Shown here: in pieces, positions 8,261 through 27,794 of the stretch
Layout of the letters: each line of letters opens with the position of its first letter
How positions within the stretch are numbered: position 1 is the stretch's first letter
Program-made: the position numbers and the translations under genes
Source of the DNA: a virus
Length of the DNA: 27,794 nucleotides
IMG/VR virus record: IMGVR_UViG_3300001533_001261
Location: 1-27,794 of that record
Direction: 5' to 3' (one strand)
Notes under the pieces: model-generated
Told to the model about the DNA's origin: nothing
Database searches by the model: none
Seen by the model: only the letters and a program-made list of their open reading frames with translations

Positions 8261-8647
8261 TTACAAATCCGACAAAAACTCTGCCAACTTCTTCTTCGTC
8301 AAGCCCTTCTCATTCAAAGACTCGTTGGTCTTTTCTGGTAGGGCCGCATAATACCAAGAAGCTTTCTTGAACACCACCACGCCCTTTTCGATTGCTTCGG
8401 AGAATTCGCTGGTGACATTCGTTCCCAATTCACTCTCTGCGTCCGAAAAATCAGGTGTGGGTTCTCCATCAGGTTCCGATTGACTTTCCGGTTCGTTATA
8501 AACTGGAATGTCATTCGTAGACCCCATTGGTTCAAACTTATTTTTGAACATCTGGTCCAACGGCACTTCAGACGGCACTACATCGTTCTTATGATAGGTC
8601 TTGCCATCTTGAACGTGCGAACCACCAATCAACTTATACAGTCTCAT
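8261..8647 (-). CDS. Small capsid-associated protein of unknown function
   Basis: 128 residues. The N-terminal 25 residues (YKLIGGSHVQDGKTYHKND) resemble the short beta module seen in many phage proteins encoded just after the major capsid gene. A long acidic Ser/Pro/Glu-rich linker (about 50-85) leads to a C-terminal helical region ending in a Lys-rich KGLTKKKLAEFLSDL. No catalytic motif. An AGGAG ribosome site and tight linkage with the capsid gene suggest a virion or assembly role. The C-terminal module resembles a small SAP/HeH-like helix pair, which I hold with low certainty. Confidence 0.65.
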   Translation of the reverse strand: MRLYKLIGGSHVQDGKTYHKNDVVPSEVPLDQMFKNKFEPMGSTNDIPVYNEPESQSEPDGEPTPDFSDAESELGTNVTSEFSEAIEKGVVVFKKASWYYAALPEKTNESLNEKGLTKKKLAEFLSDL

Positions 8648-11733: not shown

Positions 11734-11754
11734 ATCCATCTCCTATCAACCTAC

Positions 11755-12057: not shown

Positions 12058-12879
12058 TCAATTCTTCCTCATAAAACCTTTGGCAAAACCTCTGATGTAC
12101 TGAACAATTGGGCTAATACTATGCCAACAGTAGGGGATCACACGGATGGAAGCTCCTTGATGATTCTCCGCATGAAAACGGTGAAGCTTAATCGGCCAAT
12201 ATGGCTGTCCTACATCATCGTGGCCTTCGGCTACTAGACCGTCCTCATGGGAAATCAAAGCTAGTGGTCTACCACACATAAGGGCCAAGTGAGCTAATCC
12301 ATTATCCGTTGCCACTACAAGTCTGGACCTAAGCATTCCAGCTATCGTGTTGTCTAAATATCTATTTCCGTATGTATCATTCCAAGCTGCATCACAATTG
12401 ATCACACGATAGGACGAATCTGGATGCCCTGCGGCGAAAACTGAAAGTCCTTCCCCAGTAAGAAAATTTGTTAGTTCTTGCCAATGCTTCCAATTCTTAT
12501 CAGAACCGTATTGACGCCAACGTGGACAAACTGCCACGTCAAAACTATCTGGCATCCCCTTTACTGCTTGGTATGGTTGAGGAATAAAATACTTTCGTGG
12601 AGCTTTTTGATCAGGTTCGTGAAAGATAATATCCGCATCAATATTACGTTCCTGCCATAACCGCTTAGCTAAATTCAATCGGTCTGGTTCTGGCCTAGCA
12701 CGTCTGTCCTTGTCTGGTCGATAGTCTACATATTCATAATCGCAGTCTGGGTATAACGATTCCATACCATCTTCAATCATAGCTATCTTCGGTGTAGGAA
12801 TCGCATTTACCTGTGGAGCATGAAACATACAAATAAAACCAAACTCAGCCCGGTAGGGCAGAATAACTTGCAAGCTCAT
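12058..12879 (-). CDS. Glycosyltransferase family 9-like protein
   Basis: 273 residues. The C-terminal domain has NWKHWQELTNFLTGEGLSVF followed by AAGHPD and then LVVATDNGLAHLALMCGRPL (about 190-210). This is the nucleotide-sugar-binding signature of heptosyltransferase-like GT9 enzymes, where a Thr/Asp-Asn/Ser-Gly-His element holds the donor. The N-terminal half is atypical and short, so the acceptor domain may be reduced. It is the last of six consecutive surface-modification genes and starts in an overlap with the sulfotransferase upstream. A sugar-transfer role is inferred; donor and acceptor are unknown. Confidence 0.75.
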   Translation of the reverse strand: MSLQVILPYRAEFGFICMFHAPQVNAIPTPKIAMIEDGMESLYPDCDYEYVDYRPDKDRRARPEPDRLNLAKRLWQERNIDADIIFHEPDQKAPRKYFIPQPYQAVKGMPDSFDVAVCPRWRQYGSDKNWKHWQELTNFLTGEGLSVFAAGHPDSSYRVINCDAAWNDTYGNRYLDNTIAGMLRSRLVVATDNGLAHLALMCGRPLALISHEDGLVAEGHDDVGQPYWPIKLHRFHAENHQGASIRVIPYCWHSISPIVQYIRGFAKGFMRKN

Positions 12880-13556
12880 TCATTGTTTCCTTCATCTGTA
12901 TCCTTTTCCCAATCAGAATAGTAAGCACTAGTAAACCAATCTGTACTTATTTGATACATTTCCCGTTGTTCTTCAGACAATTGATCCAAAGATTGAATTA
13001 AAGTCCGTCCAGCAGAATTAACCTTTCGCTCTATTGAAACGTGTTGAATAGGAACATCGTCAATGGCCGTCCATCGGATTAACTTAGTCAAAACATTTTT
13101 ATCGGTTGTAAATTCCTCAAATCGGAAGAAAGGACATTCTTGAAAAGCTATTAAACGATGTGTTGTTTCTAAAGCCCTTCTCAAAGCTTCCAAACGACTC
13201 TCCCAACCAGGTCTAGTAAACCAAGGCAACCGATGGGATTGTTTATTCAAGCTGGAAAGCAAAATATCGTCCGGATGACGAATTAACACAGCCACTTTCT
13301 TTACACCTACATCCAAAGCCACTTCACGAAGAAATGAATTGACTTCTCCGTATCGTTCACGTCCTTGAAAACGATCAGTGACTGCTTTAATATGAGCTTT
13401 CTTAATCCTACTAATATCTTTTGGATCTGTTAGATATGAAACATATTTGGAATCCTCCCAATGTTCATGGCGTACTATCCATTTGCGACTCATTGCCAAC
13501 ACTTTAGCCAAGAACAAAGTTCCCGTTCTTCCACTTCCCGTTAGGATAAATGACAT
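12876..13556 (-). CDS. P-loop sulfotransferase-like protein (first copy)
   Basis: 226 residues. The 5'-phosphosulfate loop GSGRTGT (residues 7-13) opens the protein. VAVLIRHPDDILLSSLNK (about 89-105) matches the 3'-phosphate-binding Arg...Ser block of PAPS-dependent sulfotransferases. RFEEFTTDKNVLTKLIRWTAI matches the helix that usually follows. Substrate is probably a glycan. Start and stop overlap both neighbours, so translation is coupled. It is about as long as other compact bacterial and phage sulfotransferases, and only weakly similar to the second copy at 14.3-14.9 kb. Confidence 0.78.
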   Translation of the reverse strand: MSFILTGSGRTGTLFLAKVLAMSRKWIVRHEHWEDSKYVSYLTDPKDISRIKKAHIKAVTDRFQGRERYGEVNSFLREVALDVGVKKVAVLIRHPDDILLSSLNKQSHRLPWFTRPGWESRLEALRRALETTHRLIAFQECPFFRFEEFTTDKNVLTKLIRWTAIDDVPIQHVSIERKVNSAGRTLIQSLDQLSEEQREMYQISTDWFTSAYYSDWEKDTDEGNNE

Positions 13557-14290
13557 TCGTTGGCCTCCAATAAATTTTGCTCCATAATCCGTTGGTATCT
13601 AAGAGTTCCCATTTTGCCTCTAGAATAAACACCAGCATAGCCATCCCAGCTCGCACCACAATCCAATATCGAAACCTTACGAGCAATATTGCTATGAAGC
13701 AGCAATCTATCCGCTAGCACCGCAGCAGACATCCCCATAGAAAGGCATATTACATCAAATTGGTTATCATCAAGGGCTTGTAGAACATCATTCAGAATCA
13801 AATGGAAATAGCTATGAGCATTGATTAAAGGAACTTCCACATGGACCCAAGAATTGAACAGAACCTTAGCCGATGTGCTCAAATGAGAAGGTCCCACTAA
13901 CAACAATCGCCTGGTCCGTAGAGCAGCTATTAACTTTCCTCCCTGTCCTGAATGAACAGCTTGCCGAATTAACCTTCCTGAAGGTTGTGGTAGATGTTCC
14001 CAACCATTTTGCTTCAACCATTCCACGCCCTCATCAAATATTACTCGCCCAGGAAAAAGACCATACAAAGACAAACGCCGTCCCTCCAATGTACTAATCA
14101 AATCAGCCCTGAGTTGGGGTGTATACAATTCGCCCTGTCCATTTCGCCTTTTCTTACGGGCAATAGGATGGTCCATCATACAAAGAAATTCCCCATCACC
14201 ATAGCACCCATAATGAATAGGGACACCCTCTAGAATAGCTTTGATTAAATCGTCAGTCGTTTGGATCATAGCCTTCTCTTTCGCATACAT
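13541..14290 (-). CDS. GT-D-like glycosyltransferase (DUF1792-related)
   Basis: 249 residues. HYGCYGDGEFLCMMD (about 27-40) contains the GDGE metal/nucleotide element of GT-D glycosyltransferases (DUF1792-type). RRLLLVGPSHLSTS (about 127) and FDVICLSMGMSAAVLADRLL near residue 180 supply the expected Rossmann strands, with DCGASWDGYAG near the end. A later ATG (14269) could be the true start. Sugar-nucleotide transferase activity is inferred from the motif. The gene sits between two sulfotransferases, consistent with building a modified glycan. Confidence 0.65.
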   Translation of the reverse strand: MYAKEKAMIQTTDDLIKAILEGVPIHYGCYGDGEFLCMMDHPIARKKRRNGQGELYTPQLRADLISTLEGRRLSLYGLFPGRVIFDEGVEWLKQNGWEHLPQPSGRLIRQAVHSGQGGKLIAALRTRRLLLVGPSHLSTSAKVLFNSWVHVEVPLINAHSYFHLILNDVLQALDDNQFDVICLSMGMSAAVLADRLLLHSNIARKVSILDCGASWDGYAGVYSRGKMGTLRYQRIMEQNLLEANECHLS

Positions 14291-14909
14291 CTTTCAATTC
14301 CCGACGGAAGAATTGCAACTCATCTGGAGTAAGGACCTCATTACTCACTCCACTACGAAGCCTGCCAGCAATAGCAGCTTTCTTTGGCTTCTTCCAATTA
14401 GATGCTACAAAATCTTCAAATGGATAAGGATTAATATGAAGATTGCTATTCAACCAAAGACTGTACTGATGGAGAACAGAACCAATGCCCAAATGTTCAT
14501 ACTTAATTTCCAATACTCGAAAGGGAAACTTCGTCTTAGCATCTTTCGGCCAGCTCTGAACCAATTCTACTTGTTTCCAAAAACCTTCAGACTCTTGGTG
14601 TATCCATTGAGAAACCCTCTCCGGTGTATTCAAACCTAATCCACCACCCATACGAACTAGACCTTTGCGAACAGCCATGAAACTACGAGCGACATCCAAA
14701 GGATGCCTTTTTATACGGACAAAAACGATTTGATGTTCATGGAACAATTGAGCCAACCCAACCAATCCCAAATCACTTCTACACGGATGACACTTCCAAA
14801 ACTCCGACGCTCGTAAAACATGGACGTTCAAAGCTCCTAAAGTCTCCAAAGCCCTTAACAAAAACGTCGTTCCAGATCGTGGACAACCAAAGGCTACAAT
14901 CAATTTCAT
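14253..14909 (-). CDS. P-loop sulfotransferase-like protein (second copy)
   Basis: About 218 residues. MKLIVAFGCPRSGTTFLLRA contains a perfect sulfotransferase phosphosulfate loop (PRSGTT). VFVRIKRHPLDVARSFMAVR is the 3'-phosphate block with Arg and Ser. The N-terminal extension from an ATG at 14924 adds five unusual residues. The ATG at 14909 overlaps the preceding stop (ATGA) and places the P-loop where the family has it. A second enzyme beside the one at 12.9-13.6 kb suggests two sulfation positions or acceptors. Confidence 0.8.
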   Translation of the reverse strand: MKLIVAFGCPRSGTTFLLRALETLGALNVHVLRASEFWKCHPCRSDLGLVGLAQLFHEHQIVFVRIKRHPLDVARSFMAVRKGLVRMGGGLGLNTPERVSQWIHQESEGFWKQVELVQSWPKDAKTKFPFRVLEIKYEHLGIGSVLHQYSLWLNSNLHINPYPFEDFVASNWKKPKKAAIAGRLRSGVSNEVLTPDELQFFRRELKDVCEREGYDPND

Positions 14910-15595
14910 TTCTTTTTCGCCCATTCCTTTTCGATCTCAGCTATTCGCCTACGACGAGCTAGATTTATTTTGCCTTTGCTGATTCCACGATTCTCACGGC
15001 TGGCAATAAGATGTTCTATGATTTTTGGTTCCCATTTCGGATAGGCCCAAGGTTTATCAAAAACATAGCAATACCGACCTGGAAGTTGAACCACTTTCAA
15101 TTTAGAAAGGCTAAATCTTAACGGTGTCTTCCTTTCCAAAATATCCCGTAGATTGGCTTGTCCCCCACCCTTCCAATTTCCGTTAGCTTGTCTAGTAACA
15201 TTGACTCTTAGCCATTCATCTAGTAGCAACCGTGCCCTTTCCGTATCACCAAAATACATCGTACCGGAAAGAAACTGATTATCATTACGATTTCGATCAT
15301 AACCACTAGAAGGTCCTTGAAACCAATGGGCTGCAAAGTCACAATCTAGTGAGTCAAAATAATCAGTAGGGTCTTCATGAAACACTGCATCTACATCTAC
15401 ATAAAGCAACCCACCCCGAAGTATCTTTCTCCACCATTTTAGTAACATTGGTTTCATCGCAACAGCGTGGTCCCAATCTGGTTGAGACGAAACTTCTTTT
15501 ACAATAGGAAATATATTCAAACGATGACAAGACTGGAGCAAACGATCAGCTTCTTTTGAATATTTGCCACCTGTATGAAAGGCCACTACTCTCAT
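14906..15595 (-). CDS. GT-A type glycosyltransferase with DxD motif (first copy)
   Basis: 229 residues. GGLLYVDVDAVFHEDP (about 61-76) contains the DxD metal-binding motif (DVD at 67-69). NDNQFLSGTMYFGDTERARLL follows it in the usual place, and EHLIASREN supplies a C-terminal His. These fit a nucleotide-diphospho-sugar transferase of the GT-A fold (PF03407-like). The paralogue next to it shares the xDxDA, LSGT and HL-ASRE blocks. It probably adds a sugar to a surface or virion glycan. Confidence 0.8.
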   Translation of the reverse strand: MRVVAFHTGGKYSKEADRLLQSCHRLNIFPIVKEVSSQPDWDHAVAMKPMLLKWWRKILRGGLLYVDVDAVFHEDPTDYFDSLDCDFAAHWFQGPSSGYDRNRNDNQFLSGTMYFGDTERARLLLDEWLRVNVTRQANGNWKGGGQANLRDILERKTPLRFSLSKLKVVQLPGRYCYVFDKPWAYPKWEPKIIEHLIASRENRGISKGKINLARRRRIAEIEKEWAKKK

Positions 15596-15597
15596 AT

Positions 15598-16251
15598 CTA
15601 TCCAGCCTTCTCAATAGCTTGAATAAAATGTCGACGACGTTCTATCAATTGAGGACGACACTTGCGATCTTCACGATATTCTCTACTAGCTTGAAGATGC
15701 ATAACGATGGGCGCGCCCACATCGTATCGTTTACTTGTCCGATCAAAAACCCAACACCATTCTGGACCCAATCCCAAATCCACTTCTGGAATCGTTCGGA
15801 GAAGAACTTGTGGCTGACGTGGCAAAATAGAAGTCTTGACAGTAACCTCATTCCATTTATTTACTATACTTTTTGCCTTGGGCTCAGGGGCCACGACGAT
15901 TGTGCCTGATAGCACTTCGTTTCCCAGCTGGTGTATAGAAAAAGGCTTTATCTCATTCCGCCACGTATTAGGCAATTCTGTGCGTGGGTCACGCAATAGA
16001 ATTGCATCTGCGTCTACAAATAAAATAGGACGATCTGAAAAGAACCGCATGGCTTGGAGAACGTAGGATGGCTTGAGCCTGACAGCTTCTTTCCAAGTCA
16101 ATTTCACTCGGTTCGGAACGAACATCAAGCAGCATCGTAGTCCCTCAAAACGTTCCACGGATTTCCGTAGCCGTTCGGCTTCTTGCCGGTAGGGACCATC
16201 TGTACAGTAAGCAGCCACCACTACGTCTTGCCAAAGGTCCATGGGGTTCAT
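15598..16251 (-). CDS. GT-A type glycosyltransferase with DxD motif (second copy)
   Basis: 217 residues. RPILFVDADAILLRDPRTEL (about 74-93) carries DAD at 80-82; NEVLSGTIVVAPEPKAKSI and VMHLQASREYRED follow. All three blocks occur in the same order in the neighbouring gene, so a tandem duplication with divergence is likely. The ATG overlaps the stop of a 38-codon ORF (ATGA), and the gene stops two bases before its paralogue starts. Acceptor unknown. Confidence 0.8.
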   Translation of the reverse strand: MNPMDLWQDVVVAAYCTDGPYRQEAERLRKSVERFEGLRCCLMFVPNRVKLTWKEAVRLKPSYVLQAMRFFSDRPILFVDADAILLRDPRTELPNTWRNEIKPFSIHQLGNEVLSGTIVVAPEPKAKSIVNKWNEVTVKTSILPRQPQVLLRTIPEVDLGLGPEWCWVFDRTSKRYDVGAPIVMHLQASREYREDRKCRPQLIERRRHFIQAIEKAG

Positions 16252-17847: not shown

Positions 17848-18195
17848 CTATGTATCCTCATCAGGATTCTTCCGAGTTCGTATGCCCAAACGTTTCGCTA
17901 TTATTCTAGCCTTTTTTGAACCAAAAATCGACTCGGACAACCGATCTAGCTGATTATAAAATTCTGCGAACCAACAACGTCCAGAATTCTCAGGCTGATC
18001 AGGGTCCTCCCAATGGGGATTATGGGCCATAACGTAGAACCTAATCAACTGCTCCACATCGTGTTGAATGGTTTTGTATCGGCGCTTGGCATTATCGGAC
18101 CGTTTCTTAAGTCGTTTGATTTCTTTTCCAGCATCCATTACAGCACGAGCATTTTTCAAATACTTTAGTTGTGCCTTAGTCACGTGTTCTTTCAT
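17848..18195 (-). CDS. Conserved-looking coiled-coil protein, unknown function
   Basis: 115 residues. The N-terminal half is basic and heptad-like (AQLKYLKNARAVMDAGKEIK). The middle is IQHDVEQLIRFYVMAHNPHW and the C-terminus is Arg/Lys-rich. No recognised domain. The ATG overlaps the preceding stop (ATGA), and the stop abuts the MuF start (TAGATG), so it is translationally coupled to the head protein on its downstream side. A role in packaging the MuF protein or toxin is a guess from position only. Confidence 0.6.
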   Translation of the reverse strand: MKEHVTKAQLKYLKNARAVMDAGKEIKRLKKRSDNAKRRYKTIQHDVEQLIRFYVMAHNPHWEDPDQPENSGRCWFAEFYNQLDRLSESIFGSKKARIIAKRLGIRTRKNPDEDT

Positions 18196-18872
18196 GTTCC
18201 AAAATTCCCTTTCAATATAGCAAAGTCGTCTATGTTTACTCTATTATCGTGATTGAAATCCCCATGCCACCAGCCTCCAATTTCCCCGAAGTTCTTTTTC
18301 AATCGGGCGAAATCATCTAGGTCCACGTCCCCATCTAAATCACAATCGCCTTTCGGAAACACCCATGGTTCCTCACGGCTAATGAACATAGCCGTAGCCA
18401 CCGAAACCTCATGGATTAGAACGTACGCTGTCGACACGTCCTGCCGATAGGTATGATGCCAATAAACTCCATAACCTTCCCATTCAACCTTAACTTCCCA
18501 AATCTCCCCAGCAGGTATGGTTCCCAATTCGTATCCGTCATAATCTGGATAACAACGATCTTCTTCCCATACACCATTTCCTGTTACGATAGGATTGCTG
18601 AGAACCGGGTGAAGGTCCATGAAATCATATTGCTCATGATACCAACGCCAATACACGTTGGGCTGATCAAGTCCCGATTCATTTTCAAACGACATATGGA
18701 CAGTGACAAAACCATCATCTTCGTAGACTTTACATTCTACTGTTCCAGCTCTACCACCTTGGCCAGATGGGAGAAACAAACGGCTATCCGAATAAAGACC
18801 GAAAAGAACACGGGGCATGAAAACGATGCAAATAATTACAATAATTGTTCGTAGCAAAATCGTTTCTACCAA
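18192..18872 (-). CDS. Exported protein with C-terminal dockerin-type repeats
   Basis: 226 residues. An N-terminal hydrophobic stretch (LLRTIIVIICIVFMPRVLFG) looks like a signal peptide or anchor. The middle (about 40-170) is beta-rich with many Trp/Tyr. The end (175-226) has two dockerin type I calcium loops, GDCDLDGDVDLDDFARLKKNFG and GDFNHDNRVNIDDFAILKGNFG (22 residues each, GD-x-D/N-x-D-x-x-V-x-x-D-D spacing, underlined by FxxLKxNFG). Dockerins normally bind cohesins on surface scaffolds. The apparent start is TTG, overlapping the ThyX stop by seven bases. Such a protein is unusual in a phage late operon; host-envelope attachment or a lysis or adsorption role is inference. Confidence 0.8.
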   Translation of the reverse strand: MVETILLRTIIVIICIVFMPRVLFGLYSDSRLFLPSGQGGRAGTVECKVYEDDGFVTVHMSFENESGLDQPNVYWRWYHEQYDFMDLHPVLSNPIVTGNGVWEEDRCYPDYDGYELGTIPAGEIWEVKVEWEGYGVYWHHTYRQDVSTAYVLIHEVSVATAMFISREEPWVFPKGDCDLDGDVDLDDFARLKKNFGEIGGWWHGDFNHDNRVNIDDFAILKGNFGT

Positions 18873-19540
18873 ATCTTTGGTTTAGTAAGTGGGCCTACCA
18901 TAATTGTGTACAAATCTTCAAAGACCGTAGGAATAGCAGTAAACAATTTATCCAACGCCATCCGCATCAATCCCCGAATTTGCCATTGCGCTCTAGGATT
19001 CAATGCTCTTTCTTTGAACACATGACGCCACTGCCGTAGATTATAGGTTGTTACCACTTCCGTTTTCGTAGCGTTAGGCAAAACGCTTCGTGCGTCCTCT
19101 GGTTTAATCCCAGCTTCGATCAAACCTGAATAGCGGGCGCAAGCTTCTTCCACCAAGGACAACCAACGCTGGAAGTTTGGCGTTCCCATTTCGATGCTCA
19201 AAGGACGAATGACTTGGAATCCCTTCTGACTGTAATTAACATACCGTTGGGACTCCTGACTGTAAGCTGCTATGCGATGCCGAACTAACTGGTGGCTCAT
19301 CGACCGATCACCGACGAATCGGACCGTCACGGCCAAATGCTCCAAAACGCTTTCATGCCCATTTCGAATAAGCATTTGAACAAACTTCTCAGCGGACTGA
19401 TCCGTGATATGATTCTCACTTTTGTAACACGTTCGTCCGATGATTTCCAAAAGTCTAGGATATTCAAGCAACCAAGCTTCCGGCGTTAGAATTTGAACAG
19501 ACGGTTGGATTATCTGGATGTCAATTTTCGGCTTTTCCAC
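18866..19540 (-). CDS. thyX: Flavin-dependent thymidylate synthase ThyX
   Basis: 224 residues, normal for the family. RHRIAAYSQESQRY (87-100) is the ThyX signature RHRxxS-type motif; GHESVLEH (61-68) and the C-terminal helices with LRQWRHVF also fit. The enzyme makes dTMP from dUMP using FAD, NADPH and methylenetetrahydrofolate, supplying thymidine for phage DNA synthesis. The GTG start follows AAAGGAG by about eight bases. It lies in the late-operon orientation between unrelated small genes and the dockerin protein, so it is best viewed as metabolic cargo. Confidence 0.95.
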   Translation of the reverse strand: MEKPKIDIQIIQPSVQILTPEAWLLEYPRLLEIIGRTCYKSENHITDQSAEKFVQMLIRNGHESVLEHLAVTVRFVGDRSMSHQLVRHRIAAYSQESQRYVNYSQKGFQVIRPLSIEMGTPNFQRWLSLVEEACARYSGLIEAGIKPEDARSVLPNATKTEVVTTYNLRQWRHVFKERALNPRAQWQIRGLMRMALDKLFTAIPTVFEDLYTIMVGPLTKPKIW

Positions 19541-19606
19541 GTACAGTCTCCTTTTCGCACCTTATAGCTTCGTTCTAACCCATCTAAAACCACGGCAAAC
19601 ACAGTT

Positions 19607-19981
19607 CTAAGACACTTTCTTCCGAAAAGCGTAGAGATACCCCATTTCGGTATAGAAGAGCTTTCTAAGGGCCAATGAAGTGAGCAATCGGTCACCTTGT
19701 TGGTCTATGACCCGCGTTGCGTTATACCAATATCGTTCTCGCCCTTGAAAAACATAGGCAACCGAAGCCGCCAAATTCATATCAGCCATTCCAGAGTAAT
19801 GCCGAAGTGCTCGATAGACTCGGTAAAACCGTTCCCACCGCACGCGCAAGTTTGACCCAGATTTGAACGACCGTTGAATTATCTCAATAAAGTCCATCCG
19901 AAGCTGGTGGGCTTTCTGTTGAATCGCTGCTTGGATTTCCGGACTCATCTGACTTTGAGTAAACACTTCCCGTCTCACCAT
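19607..19981 (-). CDS. Basic helical protein, unknown function
   Basis: About 124 residues from the ATG at 19981, which has a very good AAAGGAG ribosome site seven bases upstream. A longer frame from 20023 lacks one. Rich in Arg/Gln/Tyr with aromatic helices (ERFYRVYRALRHYSGMADMN, ERYWYNATRVIDQQGDRLL). I see no known motif. It overlaps the end of the gene upstream by about 98 bases in another frame. Confidence 0.62.
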   Translation of the reverse strand: MVRREVFTQSQMSPEIQAAIQQKAHQLRMDFIEIIQRSFKSGSNLRVRWERFYRVYRALRHYSGMADMNLAASVAYVFQGRERYWYNATRVIDQQGDRLLTSLALRKLFYTEMGYLYAFRKKVS

Positions 19982-20366
19982 ACGTAATCTCCTTTCGGGG
20001 TTCCTCCTTATTTTCTGCTTCACGCTTCATCTCATCCCACTTTCGTACTGAGAAGGATTTTACAAAATCATGAATAGCATCTAACACAGCAGGACCGTTG
20101 CGAACAACTCGCCAGGGACAACAAAAACCATCTGAATCTTCCAACCACACCCTATAGTAGTGAACGTTTACTGCTTTGAACGCTGGGAAGATGTTGCGCC
20201 ATCGCATACTCTTGAGCTTACGATGTTCAGAACGATTCAAAACCAACATCATCGGAATCGTTTTAGGACCTGAGCGAGTGGCCTTCCAAGGATACCGACG
20301 AATGTTGATGTAAAACCTCTTTTGGTACTTCATCTTCTTCTTGGTCCACTTAGTCAATCGTTTCAT
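19884..20366 (-). CDS. Basic protein with a Ser-rich tail, unknown function
   Basis: 160 residues. The N-terminal 110 residues are strongly basic and look folded (RRYPWKATRSGPKTIPMMLV, then AVNVHYYRVWLEDSDGF). The last 50 are disordered, Ser/Glu/Pro-rich and overlap the next gene in another frame. No enzyme signature seen. The overlap means the C-terminal sequence could be constrained by the downstream gene. Confidence is higher for the N-terminal part than for the full length. Confidence 0.58.
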   Translation of the reverse strand: MKRLTKWTKKKMKYQKRFYINIRRYPWKATRSGPKTIPMMLVLNRSEHRKLKSMRWRNIFPAFKAVNVHYYRVWLEDSDGFCCPWRVVRNGPAVLDAIHDFVKSFSVRKWDEMKREAENKEEPRKEITYGETGSVYSKSDESGNPSSDSTESPPASDGLY

Positions 20367-20381
20367 TTTAATTTGCTCTTT

Positions 20382-20975
20382 CTATTCAGCCTTCTTGAGT
20401 ACTCGCCTTGCCTTTGCCATACCTTTATTGGTAAGTTCCCACACACCCTTGGGAGAATGGTCTTTAATCCAACCATTATGCTTCATCTCAAGACGTTCAA
20501 ATTGAGCATATGCCCACCAACGTGGACAACGACGACTTCCATCACGAATCATTTCGTAATCAACTTTATTCAAAATAGGTCTCATCATCAACTCAACACG
20601 ACTTAACACGTCACCTATTTGACCGCTGCCTCCCATCTGGTAAAGAACTTTCAAGATTGATTCATAATAAGCCGATTGAGACGTAATGCGTTCAATATCA
20701 TCAGTATCGTTTTCACCTTCTTTCCGTTTGGGCACTGTTGGAATCAACTCATCCCATTCTTTGCACAGAATTGAGACTTTGTCCCGAATTGACTTCTTTG
20801 CTTTAGCTGTTTCTACTACTTCCTGAACTTTCTCGTATTCCTTTCTTTTAAAAGATTTGGAACCAACAACATTGAGCTTGTGTATCTCAATGTCTATTCG
20901 TTCAAGTAGCATCTCGAATGACGATAATACGTCGTTAAATTCACTCCAACTCATTTGATTTATTTGGTCGTTCAC
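20382..20975 (-). CDS. Mrr_N-like winged-helix protein
   Basis: 197 residues. An N-terminal coiled-coil region (about 1-90) precedes a domain whose order matches the Mrr N-terminal winged helix (PF14338-like): SILKVLYQMGGSGQIGDV, ILNKVDYEMIRDG, RWWAYAQFERLEMKHNGWIK and GVWELTNKGMAKARRVL. In Mrr this module binds DNA. No nuclease domain is attached here, so a DNA-binding regulator or modulator is more likely than an active restriction enzyme. The start is GTG in a GTGA overlap with the membrane protein upstream, with AAGGA six bases before it. Confidence 0.68.
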   Translation of the reverse strand: MNDQINQMSWSEFNDVLSSFEMLLERIDIEIHKLNVVGSKSFKRKEYEKVQEVVETAKAKKSIRDKVSILCKEWDELIPTVPKRKEGENDTDDIERITSQSAYYESILKVLYQMGGSGQIGDVLSRVELMMRPILNKVDYEMIRDGSRRCPRWWAYAQFERLEMKHNGWIKDHSPKGVWELTNKGMAKARRVLKKAE

Positions 20976-21190
20976 TTGTTTTCCTTGTTCTTCCTGTCTT
21001 TTTGATTATGTCTAGTGAAAAATTCTGTTCCTTCCATCTTATTTGCAGCCTCAACGGACGCGCCTATAGACACAAACAGAGCTAGAACAAAGGCCAAAAA
21101 GATGCTGCTACAAAACAACAGGTAATAAAACAAATACCACAACGGAAAGAAAACTATTATGGCTGACACCCAAGCCCAAGTAGGTAACAT
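20972..21190 (-). CDS. Small membrane protein, unknown function
   Basis: 72 residues. Residues 6-45 are nearly all hydrophobic (WVSAIIVFFPLWYLFYYLLF and SSIFLAFVLALFVSIGASVE), giving one long or two close membrane segments. The last 25 are charged and cytoplasmic-looking. An AGGAG site lies eight bases before the ATG. It is the first gene after the terminator of the noncoding RNA region and overlaps the next gene by four bases. A holin-like role is possible by size, but no lysis gene lies beside it and I do not assign one. Confidence 0.65.
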   Translation of the reverse strand: MLPTWAWVSAIIVFFPLWYLFYYLLFCSSIFLAFVLALFVSIGASVEAANKMEGTEFFTRHNQKDRKNKENK

Positions 21191-21205
21191 TTTCCTTCTC
21201 CTATT

Positions 21206-21273
21206 AAAAAAGCCTCAGAGGATACAAAGCCACGAGTTCAATAGGGCTTCGTTGTTATTATCCTCTGAGGCTT
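21206..21273 (-). terminator. Terminator-like hairpin at the end of the large RNA region
   Basis: Arms 21210-21224 and 21259-21273 pair perfectly over 15 bp. The loop of 34 bases contains an inner 5-bp AAGCC/GGCTT hairpin. On the minus strand the stem runs into a six-T tract (21206-21211, two bases of which belong to the stem). It stands about 16 bases before the ATG of the membrane-protein gene. It is the natural 3' end of the RNA starting near 22380. The long loop is less compact than in a normal intrinsic terminator. Confidence 0.7.
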
Positions 21274-21302
21274 CGTCTGACCAGGCAAACATTCTCTAGA
21301 TC

Positions 21303-21361
21303 AAGAAGTGGCTAAGCAGCCATCCCGCTGCTAGGCACTTAATAAGTCGCAGCCACTTCTT
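21303..21361 (-). other. RNA domain: 11-bp closed three-way hairpin
   Basis: Arms 21303-21313 and 21351-21361 pair perfectly (AAGAAGTGGCT with its complement). Inside lie a 6-bp AGCAGC/GCTGCT hairpin with a six-base loop and a short ACTT/AAGT hairpin. The stem is followed by no T tract, so this is an internal domain, not a terminator. Confidence 0.72.
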
Positions 21362-21640
21362 CAAAATACTTAACTAACTAGAACATGATTGCTGCCCAAC
21401 CTTTCATCTCATATTCTAAGCATTCAATGCTGCCCCACGCTACTAGGGCCAGAAGCGTTTCCACGTGTCCCACAAGGACCCATTCGCCACATAATTCACA
21501 TATCAAAAAATCTCAATGAATTAGTTTTCAATAGGGGCTTTTCAATCGCCCCGCATAAGCAACCTCCTTCCCTTTAATTCATTCTTCCATAGCATCCGAA
21601 TCGCATACGTATTATCAGGGACATGCCCCAGTTCAATTCT

Positions 21641-21702
21641 ACGACTCGTGAGTGGGACTGCCCATCCCAGCTGCGGAGGAAACAGCATAGCCCACGAGTC
21701 GT
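21641..21702 (-). other. RNA domain: 10-bp closed three-way hairpin
   Basis: Arms 21641-21650 and 21693-21702 pair perfectly (ACGACTCGTG/CACGAGTCGT). Inside are a GCTG/CAGC hairpin with a nine-base loop and a TGGGA/TCCCA hairpin with a seven-base loop that resembles an anticodon arm but lacks U33. Between this domain and the one at 21303-21361 (about 280 bases) smaller hairpins occur, for example GGGGC/GCCCC at 21534-21552 and ACGCT/AGCGT near 21437-21460. Confidence 0.65.
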
Positions 21703-21712
21703 GAGGGAAAGA

Positions 21713-21835
21713 TGGCGCTGGAGAATCCTGCGGAGAACGCACGATCACCAACAAGGCAATCGTTATCGGCAATCAAAGGAAACACCCACCCAACGGAGGC
21801 ACAATCCATGGGTTAAACAAGACTCTCCAGCGCCA
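21713..21835 (-). other. RNA domain closed by a perfect 12-bp helix
   Basis: TGGCGCTGGAGA (21713-21724) and its complement (21824-21835) enclose about 100 bases. The interior holds a GGGTGTTTCCTTT stretch on the minus strand, also found with one extra base in the domain at 22039-22114. The helix abuts the tRNA-like element next to it with no gap, suggesting coaxial stacking. Confidence 0.72.
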
Positions 21836-21837
21836 AG

Positions 21838-21911
21838 CGGTTTCGGTAGGATTTGAACCCACAACCTCTCAGACCGGTCTGAGCGCTCTTCCAATATTGA
21901 GCTACGACACC
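21838..21911 (-). tRNA. tRNA or tRNA-like element with abnormal anticodon arm
   Basis: 74 bases fold as a cloverleaf: 7-bp acceptor (one G-A mismatch), U8-A9, D arm GCTC/GAGC with GG in the loop, T arm GTGGG-TTCAAAT-CCTAC, five-base variable loop and a G discriminator. The anticodon arm is a 16-base perfect palindrome, CTCAGACCGGTCTGAG. Its loop is at most six bases, lacks U33 and can collapse to a CCGG tetraloop, so no anticodon can be named. The acceptor stem also extends three base pairs beyond position 1 and 72 (21836-21845 with 21905-21914), leaving no free CCA end. I read it as a tRNA-like domain of the large RNA. A degenerate tRNA gene is the alternative. Confidence 0.55.
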
Positions 21912-21914
21912 GCT

Positions 21915-22030
21915 GATTCTTTGCTACTCAGATTGAGAACCCGACTTACCCATGCCAGTAAGCCGTCTCTAGCTCTCAACCCACCCACTTACACCTATAT
22001 CCCATAACGGCATGCCCATCGCAAAGAATC
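21915..22030 (-). other. RNA domain closed by a perfect 10-bp helix
   Basis: GATTCTTTGC (21915-21924) and GCAAAGAATC (22021-22030) pair over the whole length. The interior contains a TTGAGA/TCTCAA stem enclosing a GCTTAC/GTAAGT hairpin with an eight-base loop. It directly adjoins the acceptor-like stem of the neighbouring tRNA-like element. Confidence 0.7.
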
Positions 22031-22038
22031 ATAATAAA

Positions 22039-22114
22039 CACGTGATGGGCAGAAGGTCACGGACTCCAATTAAGCCTTCCCCAAGGCTGCTGAAAGGAAA
22101 GCACCCATCACGTG
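22039..22114 (-). other. RNA domain closed by a perfect 11-bp helix, cloverleaf-like
   Basis: CACGTGATGGG (22039-22049) pairs with CCCATCACGTG (22104-22114). Inside, on the minus strand, are a TGCT/AGCA stem in D-arm position and an AGCCT-TGGGGA-AGGCT stem in anticodon-arm position, again with a six-base loop. A weak GGAG/CTTC stem lies in T-arm position. The layout imitates a tRNA but lacks a proper T loop. Confidence 0.68.
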
Positions 22115-22117
22115 AAT

Positions 22118-22218
22118 GAGAACCGCCAGGAATCAAACCTGGATTGATTGGTGGAAAGGATAGAAAGCCCCAACCAATTAGCGTCCAAGGTTCGTCCACG
22201 CCTTGTCGCTACGGTCCT
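22118..22218 (-). other. Expanded tRNA-like element
   Basis: Acceptor AGGACCG/CGGTTCT (7 bp, extending outward to 9 bp at 22117-22125/22212-22220), U8-A9 and a canonical T arm CCAGG-TTTGATT-CCTGG (22126-22142) are all in tRNA register, with C in the discriminator place. The D arm is replaced by a long hairpin (GCG...CGC enclosing CAAGG/CCTTG). The anticodon arm is replaced by ATTGGT/ACCAAT around a large loop. At 101 bases it is not a class I or normal class II tRNA. The acceptor/T-arm stack is what RNase P recognises, so processing at its 5' end is possible. Confidence 0.6.
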
Positions 22219-22246
22219 CACCCCAACCGCACCCAAAACAATAATT

Positions 22247-22383
22247 GAGACTACGAAAGGGTGAACAGCGGAATCGAAAAGCCGCCACCACGACGGTTGG
22301 CCAGCTCCGTCGTTAAACGTTGCCCTTTTGCGTGTCCTCTAACCAGCTAACCAGCGAAAACAACTCGCTGCTGGCGTAGTCCC
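22247..22383 (-). other. 5' domain of the large RNA, closed by a 9-bp helix
   Basis: The first transcribed bases (22375-22383, GGGACTACG) pair with 22247-22255 through nine pairs including one G-U. Inside are a CCAGC/GCTGG hairpin, a 7-bp ACGACGG/CCGTCGT hairpin with a ten-base loop (near 22293-22316) and a GCGG/CCGC hairpin whose loop contains TTCGATT, a T-loop-like sequence. The helix start coincides with the predicted transcription start. Confidence 0.65.
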
Positions 22384-22386
22384 AAA

Positions 22387-22417
22387 ATTATAACACCCTA
22401 TTCAATTGTCAATTGAA
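22387..22417 (-). promoter_or_regulatory. Promoter with palindrome for the large RNA
   Basis: On the minus strand a perfect TATAAT (22392-22387) lies downstream of a perfect TTGACA (22412-22407) with a short 14-base spacer. The -35 box is inside an exact 17-base palindrome, TTCAATTGTCAATTGAA (22401-22417), which could be an operator. Initiation seven bases after the -10 box gives a transcript starting at the GGG of the first helix. The short spacer could mean an activated promoter. Confidence 0.62.
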
Positions 22418-22421
22418 ACAA

Positions 22422-22571
22422 CTAAGACTTGTTCTTCCGAACGCTTTGCTTTTCACAAACAGCCCTGCGCTGAGAATTGTCCGGAAACTCTTTGACCATT
22501 GTTTTGTCACTCATACAACGATCAATGAATTCTTTATATTCTTCTTCTTTTCGACGAACAGGCAAAGGCAT
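22422..22571 (-). CDS. 49-residue small phage protein
   Basis: The frame reads MPLPVRRKEEEYKEFIDRC, then MSDKTMVKEFPDNSQRRAVC and a Lys-rich end. The EEYKEFIDRCM...EFPDNSQRRAVCEKQ pattern is the small module (CM-x-D...FPD-x-QR-AVC) that recurs in phage head-region proteins. Function unknown; the two Cys may bind metal. AAAGGA stands about seven bases upstream of the ATG. It ends just before the palindrome of the RNA promoter. Confidence 0.78.
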   Translation of the reverse strand: MPLPVRRKEEEYKEFIDRCMSDKTMVKEFPDNSQRRAVCEKQSVRKNKS

Positions 22572-22585
22572 TACAATTCCTTTCC

Positions 22586-22729
22586 CTAGTTGCTGAAATG
22601 TCCAGTTTCTTCGTTAGCCGTTTCGTCTGATCCGCAAATTAATGCCACCCACAATTCACGGATGATCCTGAAAAACGATGATACCAGAAAACCCAAAACG
22701 AACATGAGTACTAACATCCAACCATTCAT
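22586..22729 (-). CDS. 47-residue single-span membrane protein
   Basis: MNGWMLVLMFVLGFLVSSFF forms one hydrophobic segment, followed by RIIRELWVALICGSDETANE and an acidic end. An AAGGA ribosome site lies in the last codons of the portal gene, six bases before the ATG. No family recognised. Size and topology would also suit a spanin or holin accessory, but nothing nearby supports a lysis cassette. Confidence 0.68.
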   Translation of the reverse strand: MNGWMLVLMFVLGFLVSSFFRIIRELWVALICGSDETANEETGHFSN

Positions 22730-24229: not shown

Positions 24230-24578
24230 GATGTTTTAACCTCTCATCCAAGCGTAAACTTTCACAGTTGTTATCTTCCAAAATTCCTACAACACTCAAT
24301 TTCCATTGTCCGAAAAGATGAGGACTTGGTGGTGGTATCTTTTGCTTTTCTCCGTAATTGTAATGCGGTGTGTAATCGTTCGGCAGTTGATGGGCACGAG
24401 TACATTGATCACAGAGCAAACTACGCCGCTCAATTTCGCTAACCAATGACGCTCCGCACTCCGCACAACGAGCATCCTTCTTGGCTATGAAACGTCGGCA
24501 AGGTCCATCCTTCCGATGGCAATGATTAAATCGGTGAACGCAAAGACTGCACTCTTTATTCCACTCGCATTTACCCAA
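24162..24578 (-). CDS. Cys-rich zinc-ribbon protein between terminase and portal
   Basis: About 139 residues from a TTG that overlaps the terminase stop; an ATG at 24644 would overlap terminase by 74 bases. The N-terminal 60 residues have many Cys/His pairs (KCEWNKECSLCVHRFNHCHR, later RCAECG and LCDQC), enough for two zinc sites. The C-terminus is acidic and overlaps the portal start by 68 bases in another frame. Zinc-ribbon or HNH-like proteins are common beside terminases, but the HNH residues are not visible. A DNA-binding packaging accessory is inferred. Confidence 0.68.
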   Translation of the reverse strand: MGKCEWNKECSLCVHRFNHCHRKDGPCRRFIAKKDARCAECGASLVSEIERRSLLCDQCTRAHQLPNDYTPHYNYGEKQKIPPPSPHLFGQWKLSVVGILEDNNCESLRLDERLKHHGQDDEEDDDESEPVTQCAKRA

Positions 24579-26016
24579 GAGAAATAGCCCCGATCTGTTT
24601 TCTATTCTTAGACAACCAAGCAAAAGCCCCAGATGACGCATCAACCTGGTCTTTGTATTTAGCCAACTTCCCGAAGTTCATCAATTCCTTAAGGTATTCC
24701 GCTGTCCACTCGGCGTTGTTTACAACAACGTTTCCTGCGTTCACTTGAGCAGCGTAGGGGTCTGCTCGATAAATTTTATCACCTGTTGGCCTATGAGCAC
24801 CAACTTTGAATCCAGCTAGGTTCCGAACCGTTGCTTGCGCTGATTCTAAACCACCGGACCCTGGTTCCTGCTCTACAATTATCGTTACCGAACGGCCATC
24901 AAGCTCAGCCGTCTGCTTAATGAGCTTCTCACGTTCACCCGCATCGTACTGAACACGCTTCACGTCCAACACATAATATTTCCCATCACTCCCCTTCCCC
25001 ATCAACACGCCCACCGTATACGCTCCGCCGCCAGGAGTGGCGGCTTTGTCCCAATATCGCACCAATACCATACGGGATTCCGGCGCAACGTGACGTACTT
25101 CGATCTTAGCAACTTTGAACATACCACCAGATGGAGGCACGGGGTTCTGAAGGAATTGGCCAGCGTAGATTAATTCTCCAACGAGCTTTTGTTCAGCTAA
25201 GGCAGCACGACCAAACCGAACTGGATCAAAAAGCCCATCTACGTAGTGTGTCTTGAGTTCAGGTGGTTTGGGTTCGGGGATTCCTGGTCCCAGTTCAGCT
25301 GGAATCCTAATATGCTTAATCTTCAATCCCTTCTTTTGCCACTCTAGCATTTCAGCTGTGGGGTCCGAATCAGCCAAGCGCTGCATAATCAAAATCGTCG
25401 GCGTGCGTTCCAACGAAACTTTCCGCTTGCTAAGCGTTTGACTGATCCACTCGTTTGCAGCCTTGACTTCAGCTTCGGAATTGGACCCATTTGGGTCTAG
25501 AGGATCATCCACGATGATAACGTGTCCATGCCAACCTGTAACGCTGCCACCAGTAGAACAAGCGTATCGCCAACCACCTAGTACGTTTTGAAAAACCGTC
25601 TTGGTATTTTTATCCTTGCGGAGTCGAAGTTTGGGCCAACAAGAAAGGAAGTGGGTGCTTTGAACAATAGAACGGGACTTTTGACTCAAGTCCATTGCTA
25701 AGGAAAAATCGTAACTGCCACAAATCGTTTGTATCCAAGCCTTCCGAGTCCAAAACCAAATCGGCGCCATCACCGAAACGATTGTGCTCTTGGTGCTACC
25801 TGGGGGAACGTTAACCACTAGATCGTAGGGCTTCGGTTTTCGTTCAAAGACATGCTCAGCTAGATATTGAATCTCATCGCAAAGGTAGGGCATATGCCAA
25901 TTTGATACCATCGGTTCATCAATCGTCTCATGCCAGAATTCTTGAACGAATTCCCAAAAGCTTCCCCGACACAACGATGCCACTACTTCTGCTTCACTTA
26001 CTTCTGGTCCAATCAT
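24571..26016 (-). CDS. terL: Terminase large subunit
   Basis: 481 residues. Walker A is NVPPGSTKST (69-78, deviating from the GKS/T pattern only in the loop). Walker B is HVIIVDDPL (165-173). The coupling motif MQRLADSDPT lies near 211-220. The C-terminal RNase H-like nuclease shows RYWDKAATPGGGAYTVGV (Asp323) and IIVEQEPGSGG. This is the ATP-driven packaging motor and headful or cos cutter. The ATG is 12 bases after the small subunit stop. Full length and intact motifs argue for a functional protein. Confidence 0.95.
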   Translation of the reverse strand: MIGPEVSEAEVVASLCRGSFWEFVQEFWHETIDEPMVSNWHMPYLCDEIQYLAEHVFERKPKPYDLVVNVPPGSTKSTIVSVMAPIWFWTRKAWIQTICGSYDFSLAMDLSQKSRSIVQSTHFLSCWPKLRLRKDKNTKTVFQNVLGGWRYACSTGGSVTGWHGHVIIVDDPLDPNGSNSEAEVKAANEWISQTLSKRKVSLERTPTILIMQRLADSDPTAEMLEWQKKGLKIKHIRIPAELGPGIPEPKPPELKTHYVDGLFDPVRFGRAALAEQKLVGELIYAGQFLQNPVPPSGGMFKVAKIEVRHVAPESRMVLVRYWDKAATPGGGAYTVGVLMGKGSDGKYYVLDVKRVQYDAGEREKLIKQTAELDGRSVTIIVEQEPGSGGLESAQATVRNLAGFKVGAHRPTGDKIYRADPYAAQVNAGNVVVNNAEWTAEYLKELMNFGKLAKYKDQVDASSGAFAWLSKNRKQIGAISLG

Positions 26017-26963: not shown

Positions 26964-26992
26964 TTAACTAATATCGGTCTAGCCGATATAAT
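26964..26992 (+). promoter_or_regulatory. Rightward promoter with operator-like palindrome
   Basis: TTAACT (26964-26969) and TATAAT (26987-26992) are separated by exactly 17 bases. Within the spacer lies an inverted repeat ATATCGG-TCTAG-CCGATAT (26971-26989) overlapping the -10 box. The layout is that of a repressor-controlled sigma-70 promoter. It drives the gene at 27043 onward, opposite to the late genes. Confidence 0.7.
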
Positions 26993-27042
26993 GACTGTTG
27001 ACGATGAGGATAAAAGGAAACAACCAGACAGGAGAACGAACG

Positions 27043-27375
27043 ATGGAACGAATCAACGACAAGACGAAGACGCAAATTCGGAAGATGGCCCACGAATGCT
27101 CCAAGCTCGCCGACGCAACCACAGGACTCAACATTGACAACTGGAGCATGGAGGGTATCAGGCTTCAATCCGAAGCGTTCGTGCTCCGTTTCGTTTTGGC
27201 CTTCAACACCGTTGGTGGGGTGGAGTCGTGCATCAGAGAAACCCGGAAGGCCGCCAGGCAGCTCATGGTTGGCTACGAAGACCACGAAACGGAAAGAGCA
27301 CGACGACACGCACGTGCTAATGGGATGCTGAACGCTATTAACATGCTGGAAGCCGTCTTGAAGTCCAATCGGTAG
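27043..27375 (+). CDS. Small rightward-operon protein, unknown function
   Basis: 110 residues from an ATG with CAGGAG eight bases upstream; earlier ATGs lie in the promoter leader. Helical, Arg/Glu-rich, with GLNIDNWSMEGIRLQSEAFV in the middle and NGMLNAINMLEAVLKSNR at the end. No known domain. First gene of the rightward unit behind an operator-controlled promoter, so an early or regulatory role is likely but not shown. Codons are clearly more GC-rich than in the leftward genes. Confidence 0.65.
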   Translation: MERINDKTKTQIRKMAHECSKLADATTGLNIDNWSMEGIRLQSEAFVLRFVLAFNTVGGVESCIRETRKAARQLMVGYEDHETERARRHARANGMLNAINMLEAVLKSNR

Positions 27376-27388
27376 AACCCCAACCAAC

Positions 27389-27416
27389 GCCACCCAGGGC
27401 TTCGGTCCTGGGTGGC
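27389..27416 (+). other. UUCG-capped 12-bp hairpin between rightward genes
   Basis: GCCACCCAGGGC and GTCCTGGGTGGC pair over 12 bp (one G-U) around a TTCG tetraloop. It starts 14 bases after the stop of the previous gene and ends where the next ribosome site begins. No T tract follows, so an mRNA processing, stabilising or translation-control role fits better than termination. Confidence 0.75.
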
Positions 27417-27429
27417 AGGAGAACGAACG

Positions 27430-27794
27430 ATGAACGCACAGCACGAAAACGGATTCGGTATCGGAAAACTCGACGGTCTGACCTGGAGCACAATCGAAGG
27501 CTATGCGGCCGAAGTCACCCGTGAGGATGGGGCCGTGACCTACCGAAGTCAATACATTTGCACGGTGTTCGACGACGAATGGGGTGGCGACATTATCGAC
27601 GCCGACGGCAAATCCATGACCGAATCGCAGGTCCAGGCCGCCATTGACGAAATCGACGCCCGCGCCGTCAACTCCCACGCGGACCTGCTGGAAGCCTGCC
27701 AGGGGCTGCTTGCGCACCTCCCAGATGATGACTGGTCGGACGACCCGGACCCGACCTGCCCGTTGTGTGGACGGCCCAACCCCTATGCGACAGA
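27430..27794 (+). CDS. Rightward-operon protein with a zinc-knuckle end (partial)
   Basis: An open frame of at least 121 codons runs past the window edge: MNAQHENGFGIGKLDG, an acidic middle rich in Asp, and PTCPLCGRPNPYAT at the edge, the start of a Cys-x2-Cys metal site. The ribosome site and the bases up to the ATG (CAGGAGAACGAACGATG) are identical to those of the preceding gene. Function unknown; cannot be judged until the rest is seen. Confidence 0.65.
   Translation, partial: MNAQHENGFGIGKLDGLTWSTIEGYAAEVTREDGAVTYRSQYICTVFDDEWGGDIIDADGKSMTESQVQAAIDEIDARAVNSHADLLEACQGLLAHLPDDDWSDDPDPTCPLCGRPNPYAT

What the first reader, a model, noticed from the sequence alone, without database searches (positions are those of the whole stretch)
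21206..22382. A 1.18-kb, domain-organised noncoding RNA inside the phage late region
A 1.2-kb gap in an otherwise gene-packed operon has its own consensus -10/-35 promoter, a terminator-like 3' end and nine consecutive local domains, most closed by perfect helices of 9-12 bp. Coding potential is very low. The 5'-most helix begins at the predicted transcription start. Large ornate RNAs of phages (GOLLD, ROOL) have this scale and genomic setting near tRNAs and form oligomeric cages. Whether this one belongs to them or is a new class is unknown.
Basis: partly seen in the sequence, partly recalled or inferred. Interest (0 to 1): 0.92.

Follow-up and report, generated by a model that had tools for sequence, protein, structure and literature searches.

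The report
Orphan giant phage RNA, tRNA-like core
A virus that probably infects Bacteroidota bacteria carries, among its head-building genes, a stretch of about 1,170 bases that very likely makes a large folded RNA instead of a protein; it has a disabled tRNA built into its middle and matches no known RNA family, so it looks like a new, so far solitary, RNA similar in style (not in sequence) to the giant cage-forming phage RNAs.

Summary
Minus strand 22378-21206 is a protein-poor, highly structured stretch: eight strong inverted repeats against 0.63 expected, local fold z = -7.5, the strongest of 22 segments, weak coding signal, a strong terminator and a promoter. The promoter is Bacteroidota-type (TTG-N19-TAATTTTG), not sigma-70; relatives of the phage lie in Bacteroidota. 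A second, expanded tRNA-like domain (22218-22118) is suggestive only. GOLLD, ROOL and every other Rfam family except tRNA fail. No homologue turned up in phages, plasmids, relatives' loci or about 1,190 sampled Bacteroidota genomes, so covariation, the decisive test, could not be run. Best reading: a discrete, new large structured phage RNA that may work like GOLLD (RNA scaffold with a covalently embedded tRNA) but is not a member of it. Existence is likely (about 0.75); the mechanism rests on analogy.

The parts
22383..22412 (-). Promoter-like sequence TTG-N19-TAATTTTG (Bacteroidota type: TTG 22412-22410, -7 element 22390-22383); predicted start 22378 or 22377
   Evidence: consensus TAHHTTTG with start 4-5 nt downstream from F. 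johnsoniae, PMC6847099. Sigma-70 reading has a 14-nt spacer (sequence; not listed)
22245..22385 (-). Domain A: outer inverted repeat (10 pairs plus one G.U) with two inner hairpins; part of the 5' arm lies upstream of the predicted start
   Evidence: fold alone z = -1.4, not better than shuffles
22118..22219 (-). Domain B: four-way junction with a T-arm-like hairpin (CCAGG-UUUGAUU-CCUGG); possible enlarged tRNA-like domain (22218-22118)
   Evidence: Rfam tRNA 25.2 bits, end to end, below the cut-off of 29; only 9.1 bits with a Bacteroidota tRNA model; fold z = -3.6
22039..22114 (-). Domain C: 11-bp perfect closing helix, two inner hairpins
   Evidence: (z = -3.3)
21914..22031 (-). Domain D: 11-bp perfect closing helix with a long inner hairpin
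   Evidence: (z = -4.9)
21838..21911 (-). Domain E: tRNA-Arg(UCG)-derived cloverleaf with shortened anticodon loop in the palindrome CTCAGACCGGTCTGAG; acceptor helix extended by two G-C pairs (21913-21836)
   Evidence: Rfam tRNA 45.4 bits; 49.1 bits with model R3; 82-83% identity over 62-63 nt to Bacteroidota tRNA-Arg; not reported by ARAGORN
21713..21835 (-). Domain F: closing helix of 18 pairs (two of them G.U) enclosing two well-defined hairpins
   Evidence: (z = -6.9)
21641..21702 (-). Domain G: 10-bp perfect closing helix, two inner hairpins; weak tRNA-like score
   Evidence: (z = -4.4); 11.4 bits
21515..21583 (-). Domain H: 9-bp perfect closing helix with a GGGGC/GCCCC hairpin
   Evidence: (z = -2.2)
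21379..21510 (-). Segment I: weakly structured stretch with small hairpins and one weak inverted repeat (21418/21379)
   Evidence: 21510-21410, z = +0.3
21303..21361 (-). Domain J: 11-bp perfect closing helix, two inner hairpins
   Evidence: (z = -3.1)
21206..21273 (-). Domain K: 15-bp perfect stem with nested hairpin followed by six T (21211-21206): intrinsic-terminator-like 3' end
   Evidence: (z = -7.1); longest terminator-like stem found in the window
20972..21190 (-). Downstream gene, 72 aa, hydrophobic N-terminal half; starts 16 nt after the T run
   Evidence: no PHROGs or Pfam match
22422..22571 (-). Upstream gene, 49 aa, similar to the N-terminal end of the protease gene in relatives L141 and L085

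Best explanation
The stretch is a gene for a discrete structured RNA of about 1.17 kb. A promoter read by the Bacteroidota primary sigma factor starts it just after the 49-aa gene, and an intrinsic terminator ends it just before the 72-aa gene. The transcript folds into a chain of about ten locally closed domains. A tRNA-Arg cloverleaf without a normal anticodon loop lies in the middle, held between the long helices of domains D and F; a second, enlarged tRNA-like domain may lie near the 5' end. I think it most likely works like GOLLD: an abundant RNA scaffold, perhaps self-assembling, that carries a covalently linked tRNA-shaped module and presents it to the host's tRNA-handling machinery or encloses it in an RNA particle. 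Shown from sequence: structure above chance, weak coding signal, tRNA homology, altered anticodon loop, terminator, promoter match. Inferred: transcription as a separate RNA. Analogy only: assembly and function.
For: Eight strong inverted repeats against 0.63 expected; 4 G.U and 0 A.C mismatches on the transcribed strand. Local fold z = -7.5, lowest in the window; six domains individually at z from -3.1 to -7.1. Low codon-usage scores, no protein families. Promoter-like site directly in front (PMC6847099) and the strongest terminator directly behind. tRNA domain by two models, with the acceptor stem rewritten on both strands yet still paired, and the anticodon loop shortened. [quoted passage not shown]
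Against: No homologue, hence no covariation. No expression data. A and I fold no better than shuffles. Another 1.18-kb segment of the window, mostly coding, reaches z = -6.4. The promoter pattern occurs three times on this strand. Self-complementary loops are not enriched, so there is no sequence sign of self-assembly.
Confidence: 0.45

Rival explanations
1. It is a cis-acting structured leader or attenuator: the terminator stops most late transcription here and the upstream RNA, or a phage factor bound to it, controls read-through into the downstream head and tail genes, in the manner of antitermination RNAs.
For: The strongest terminator of the window lies in mid-operon, a few bases before the start of the next gene, and minor head, capsid and tail genes follow on the same strand.
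Against: 1.17 kb with a cloverleaf and about ten domains is far more than the short antitermination RNAs known to me; the orphan genes, not the structural genes, directly follow; 104 relatives transcribe portal and minor head without such an element between them (gap typically about 0.3 kb).
Confidence: 0.25
2. It is a decayed insertion of a phage tRNA gene (or small tRNA cluster) plus palindromic DNA elements: the structure reflects old tRNA genes and DNA repeats, with no present RNA function.
For: Domain E is clearly derived from a tRNA-Arg and has lost its anticodon loop; B and G are the next best tRNA scores of the window; relatives carry repeat-rich ORF-poor segments in other places.
Against: Decay should break helices, but they are perfect and long; the acceptor stem changed on both sides and kept pairing; the region is not repetitive; mismatches are G.U, not A.C.
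Confidence: 0.17
3. It encodes small proteins that were missed, and the RNA structure is incidental.
For: In relatives an ORF-poor stretch of about 617 nt before the portal gene turned out to be two conserved genes of 85-87 aa, so a gap is not proof of noncoding sequence; the frame 21542-21772 scores 0.07.
Against: Frames are 76 aa at most; other frames score about zero or below; no family and no relative; structure far above chance.
Confidence: 0.08
4. An OLE-like RNA that works with a small membrane protein encoded next to it.
For: Hydrophobic small proteins of 47 and 72 aa lie on either side; OLE RNA works with the membrane protein OapA (PMC12286853).
Against: No OLE match; small hydrophobic proteins are common in phage late regions (own knowledge).
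Confidence: 0.05

Closest known systems
GOLLD RNA (Rfam RF02032)
   Same: Phage-encoded, over 800 nt, many domains; a tRNA can lie inside the molecule (PMC12286853)
   Different: No match to the GOLLD covariance model; the tRNA here lacks a normal anticodon loop and is joined directly to long helices, not to a loose linker; no evidence of assembly
ROOL RNA (Rfam RF03087)
   Same: Phage-encoded, large, multi-domain
   Different: No match; ROOL is about 600 nt, this is about 1.17 kb; ROOL is described near tRNA islands, here the only tRNA-like sequence of the record is internal
Bacteroidota tRNA-Arg(UCG) (Rfam RF00005)
   Same: Domain E: D arm, variable region and T arm sequence, cloverleaf
   Different: Anticodon loop shortened, acceptor helix rewritten and extended, embedded between two other domains
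OLE RNA
   Same: Large structured RNA with small hydrophobic proteins encoded next to it
   Different: No match to any Rfam family other than tRNA

Membership tests
GOLLD | Match to the GOLLD covariance model (conserved 3' region) | tested here: not met
   No match
GOLLD | Phage origin and length above 800 nt | tested here: met
   Late operon of a viral record; predicted length about 1,173 nt
GOLLD | Near tRNA islands, or a tRNA within the molecule | tested here: met
   No tRNA island in the record, but an internal tRNA-derived domain
GOLLD | Homo-oligomeric cage | not testable with these tools
   Needs in vitro RNA; palindromic loops are not enriched
ROOL | Match to the ROOL covariance model | tested here: not met
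   rang in no control genome, so it is the weaker negative
tRNA (domain E) | Cloverleaf with D and T arms | tested here: met
   45.4 bits, 49.1 bits
tRNA (domain E) | Seven-base anticodon loop with a readable anticodon | tested here: not met
   Loop of six bases at most (ACCGGU), against CUUCGGA in tRNA-Arg; ARAGORN negative
tRNA (domain B) | tRNA model above the curated cut-off | tested here: not met
   25.2 of 29 bits; 9.1 bits with R3
tmRNA | tRNA-like domain plus tag reading frame | tested here: not met
   ARAGORN and Rfam negative
Structured noncoding RNA in general | Covariation among homologues | tested here: inconclusive
   No homologue found; only the tRNA acceptor stem could be compared

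The most novel reading that the evidence does not exclude
A new class of giant phage RNA that includes tRNA-derived modules: at least one, perhaps two or more tRNAs that lost decoding, were enlarged and locked between long helices, and now form an RNA particle or decoy that engages the host's tRNA machinery during late infection.
Probability: 0.25. Interest if true: 0.88.

Novelty: new variant of a known kind. Interest (0 to 1): 0.62.

Why it matters
GOLLD and ROOL are among the few RNAs known to build large protein-free particles, and what they do is unknown. An unrelated phage RNA of the same scale, with a tRNA inside that has lost its anticodon loop, would suggest that large tRNA-bearing RNAs arose more than once in phages and would point to tRNA biology as a shared purpose. 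I know of no such RNA from a Bacteroidota phage (own knowledge, not a search result).

Tried and rejected
(1) GOLLD/ROOL membership: rejected. (2) Homologue hunt: blastn against phages and plasmids, blastn and nhmmer on loci of terminase and portal relatives, whole records, 396 Bacteroidota genomes by DNA (only host tRNA-Arg genes), single-sequence covariance models R1 and R2 on loci, records and about 1,190 sampled Bacteroidota genomes: nothing. The 197-aa neighbour and ThyX led to no shared cassette. (3) Exact palindrome and short-loop tRNA patterns in viral contigs: chance or unrelated tRNAs. (4) Structured-looking gaps in relatives (L013, L018, L139, L143, L144) are repeat-rich, and the 617-nt conserved stretch of L107/L018 is coding. 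(5) Self-complementary (kissing) loops: 3 of 25, not beyond chance (p = 0.17). (6) The idea that all domains are tRNAs: only E is clear; B and G are weak. (7) A known GOLLD-bearing mycobacteriophage as positive control for cmscan was not in the collection.

Full report
Setting. The window is a 27.8-kb viral record. Its genes run on the minus strand: terminase small and large subunits, portal, minor head, protease, capsid and tape measure proteins. Part of the large terminase (residues 10-301) is 51.5% identical to that of Croceibacter phage P2559Y. The terminase relatives found in cellular genomes lie in a Bacteroidales MAG, two Riemerella and a Chitinophagaceae MAG. The host is therefore most likely a member of the Bacteroidota (inference). 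About 150 loci of terminase and portal relatives were collected; the closest, L141, has 56% terminase identity and has portal and minor head side by side. In 104 relatives the portal-minor head gap is typically about 0.3 kb and at most 4.6 kb; in the window it is 4.9 kb. The RNA lies in that cargo segment, together with genes without relatives and a thymidylate synthase ThyX.

Is it there? Yes. Between the 49-aa gene (ending at 22422) and the 72-aa gene (starting at 21190) the transcribed strand has no frame above 76 aa, and codon-usage scores are at or below the low end of those of real genes. No frame has a Pfam match at its cut-off. In the same 1.2 kb, inverted repeats of score 9 or more number 8, against 0.63 in dinucleotide shuffles with a maximum of 3 in 60. 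With pairing limited to 140 nt the fold is 7.5 standard deviations better than shuffles, the lowest of 22 segments of this length; another segment, at 8461, reaches -6.4, so folding energy alone would not prove the case. Domains C, D, F, G, J and K are individually better than shuffles (z from -3.1 to -7.1), while A and the segment 21510-21410 are not. Mismatches inside the inverted repeats are 4 G.U and 0 A.C on the transcribed strand, which points to pairing in RNA rather than only in DNA, though the number is small.

Ends. The same bases contain TTG-N19-TAATTTTG (22412-22383), which fits the Bacteroidota consensus; in Flavobacterium johnsoniae the -7 element is TAHHTTTG and the start lies 4-5 nt further on (PMC6847099). 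The pattern is found three times on the minus strand of the window, so it is supporting evidence, not proof. The 3' end is a 15-bp perfect stem followed by six T, the longest terminator-like stem in the window.

The tRNA inside. Rfam's tRNA model matches 21911-21838 end to end (45.4 bits), and a model built here from 29 Bacteroidota tRNAs gives 49.1 bits with all filters off. It is the only tRNA hit above cut-off in the record. ARAGORN does not report it, and a likely reason is visible: compared with Bacteroidota tRNA-Arg(UCG), 82-83% identical over 62-63 nt, the anticodon loop CUUCGGA has become CCGG (or ACCGGU counted from a five-pair stem) within the palindrome CTCAGACCGGTCTGAG. The elbow sequences are kept (GG in the D loop, UUCAAAU in the T loop). 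The acceptor stem has been rewritten but remains paired: positions 2, 3 and 5 differ on both sides from the host tRNA, position 4 is a G.A mismatch, and two further G-C pairs extend the helix. It is joined directly to the long closing helices of domains D and F. I read this as a tRNA shape kept while decoding was given up (interpretation; a sequencing error in the loop cannot be excluded from one record). Domain B (22218-22118) matches the Rfam tRNA model over its whole length with 25.2 bits when searched alone, below the curated cut-off and not listed in the wider search; with the Bacteroidota model it gets only 9.1 bits. Domains E, G and B are nevertheless the three best tRNA scores of the whole window. 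I treat B as suggestive and G as doubtful.

Relatives.

What it is. The best-supported statement is that this is a gene for a large, discrete structured RNA of an undescribed family (about 0.75). What it most resembles in working is GOLLD: similar size, phage origin, many domains, and a tRNA within the same molecule; in the GOLLD work phage-encoded tRNAs are described as sometimes present in the linker region, and the open cage is drawn exposing covalently linked tRNAs (PMC12286853). It is not a GOLLD or ROOL by the sequence-structure models. Cage assembly here is a guess; a search for self-complementary loops gave nothing beyond chance. The main rival is a cis-acting control element: the strong terminator sits in mid-operon, upstream of the genes for minor head, capsid and tail, and something must let transcription through or restart it.

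Verdict. Observation confirmed; interpretation partly supported; a solitary but well-formed candidate for a new large phage RNA with an embedded tRNA-Arg that has lost a normal anticodon loop. Interest 0.62, limited by the lack of homologues and of expression data.

Noticed in passing
22422-22571 (-); L141:9004-9129; L085:8994-9131: The 49-aa gene just upstream of the RNA is about 50% identical to the N-terminal end of the protease gene of relatives; the window's own protease (10342-11739) aligns to L141 only from after that piece, so the piece seems to have become a separate gene 11 kb away.
   Followed up: partly
17848-22729: The segment between portal and minor head is a variable cargo site: 4.9 kb here against typically about 0.3 kb in 104 relatives; apart from ThyX (about 50% relatives in viral contigs) and the 49-aa gene its proteins had no relatives in the loci searched.
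   Followed up: partly
12058-16251 (-); L141:4965-8681: A cassette with weak matches to glycosyltransferases and a sulfotransferase lies inside the head operon and is shared, in the same order, with the closest relative L141 (23-59% identity).
   Followed up: no
24571-26016 (-): Large terminase: the match to Croceibacter phage P2559Y covers residues 10-301 at 51.5% only, which may mean a mosaic gene.
   Followed up: no
L107:7295-7817; L018:13654-14177; also L111, L125: A stretch of about 617 nt before the portal gene in relatives looks noncoding with a 90-aa ORF limit but holds two conserved neighbouring genes of 85-87 aa.
   Followed up: yes
L013:1-900; L018:11459-12440; L143:2439-5491; L144:3974-5153; L139:999-1925: Repeat-rich ORF-poor segments of 0.9-3 kb, often near the terminase genes, with dense short palindromic repeats; function unknown.
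   Followed up: partly
L209:8900-8971 (-); L211:1196-1267 (+): Viral-contig tRNAs that ARAGORN reports with four-base anticodons (aaag and gcga), possible frameshift-suppressor tRNAs.
   Followed up: no
22586-22729 (-); 20972-21190 (-): Small proteins of 47 and 72 aa with hydrophobic segments lie on either side of the RNA; neither has a known family.
   Followed up: no
26968-27717 (-): A 249-aa open frame with a negative codon-usage score (-0.09) and no family match; it may not be a gene as listed.
   Followed up: no
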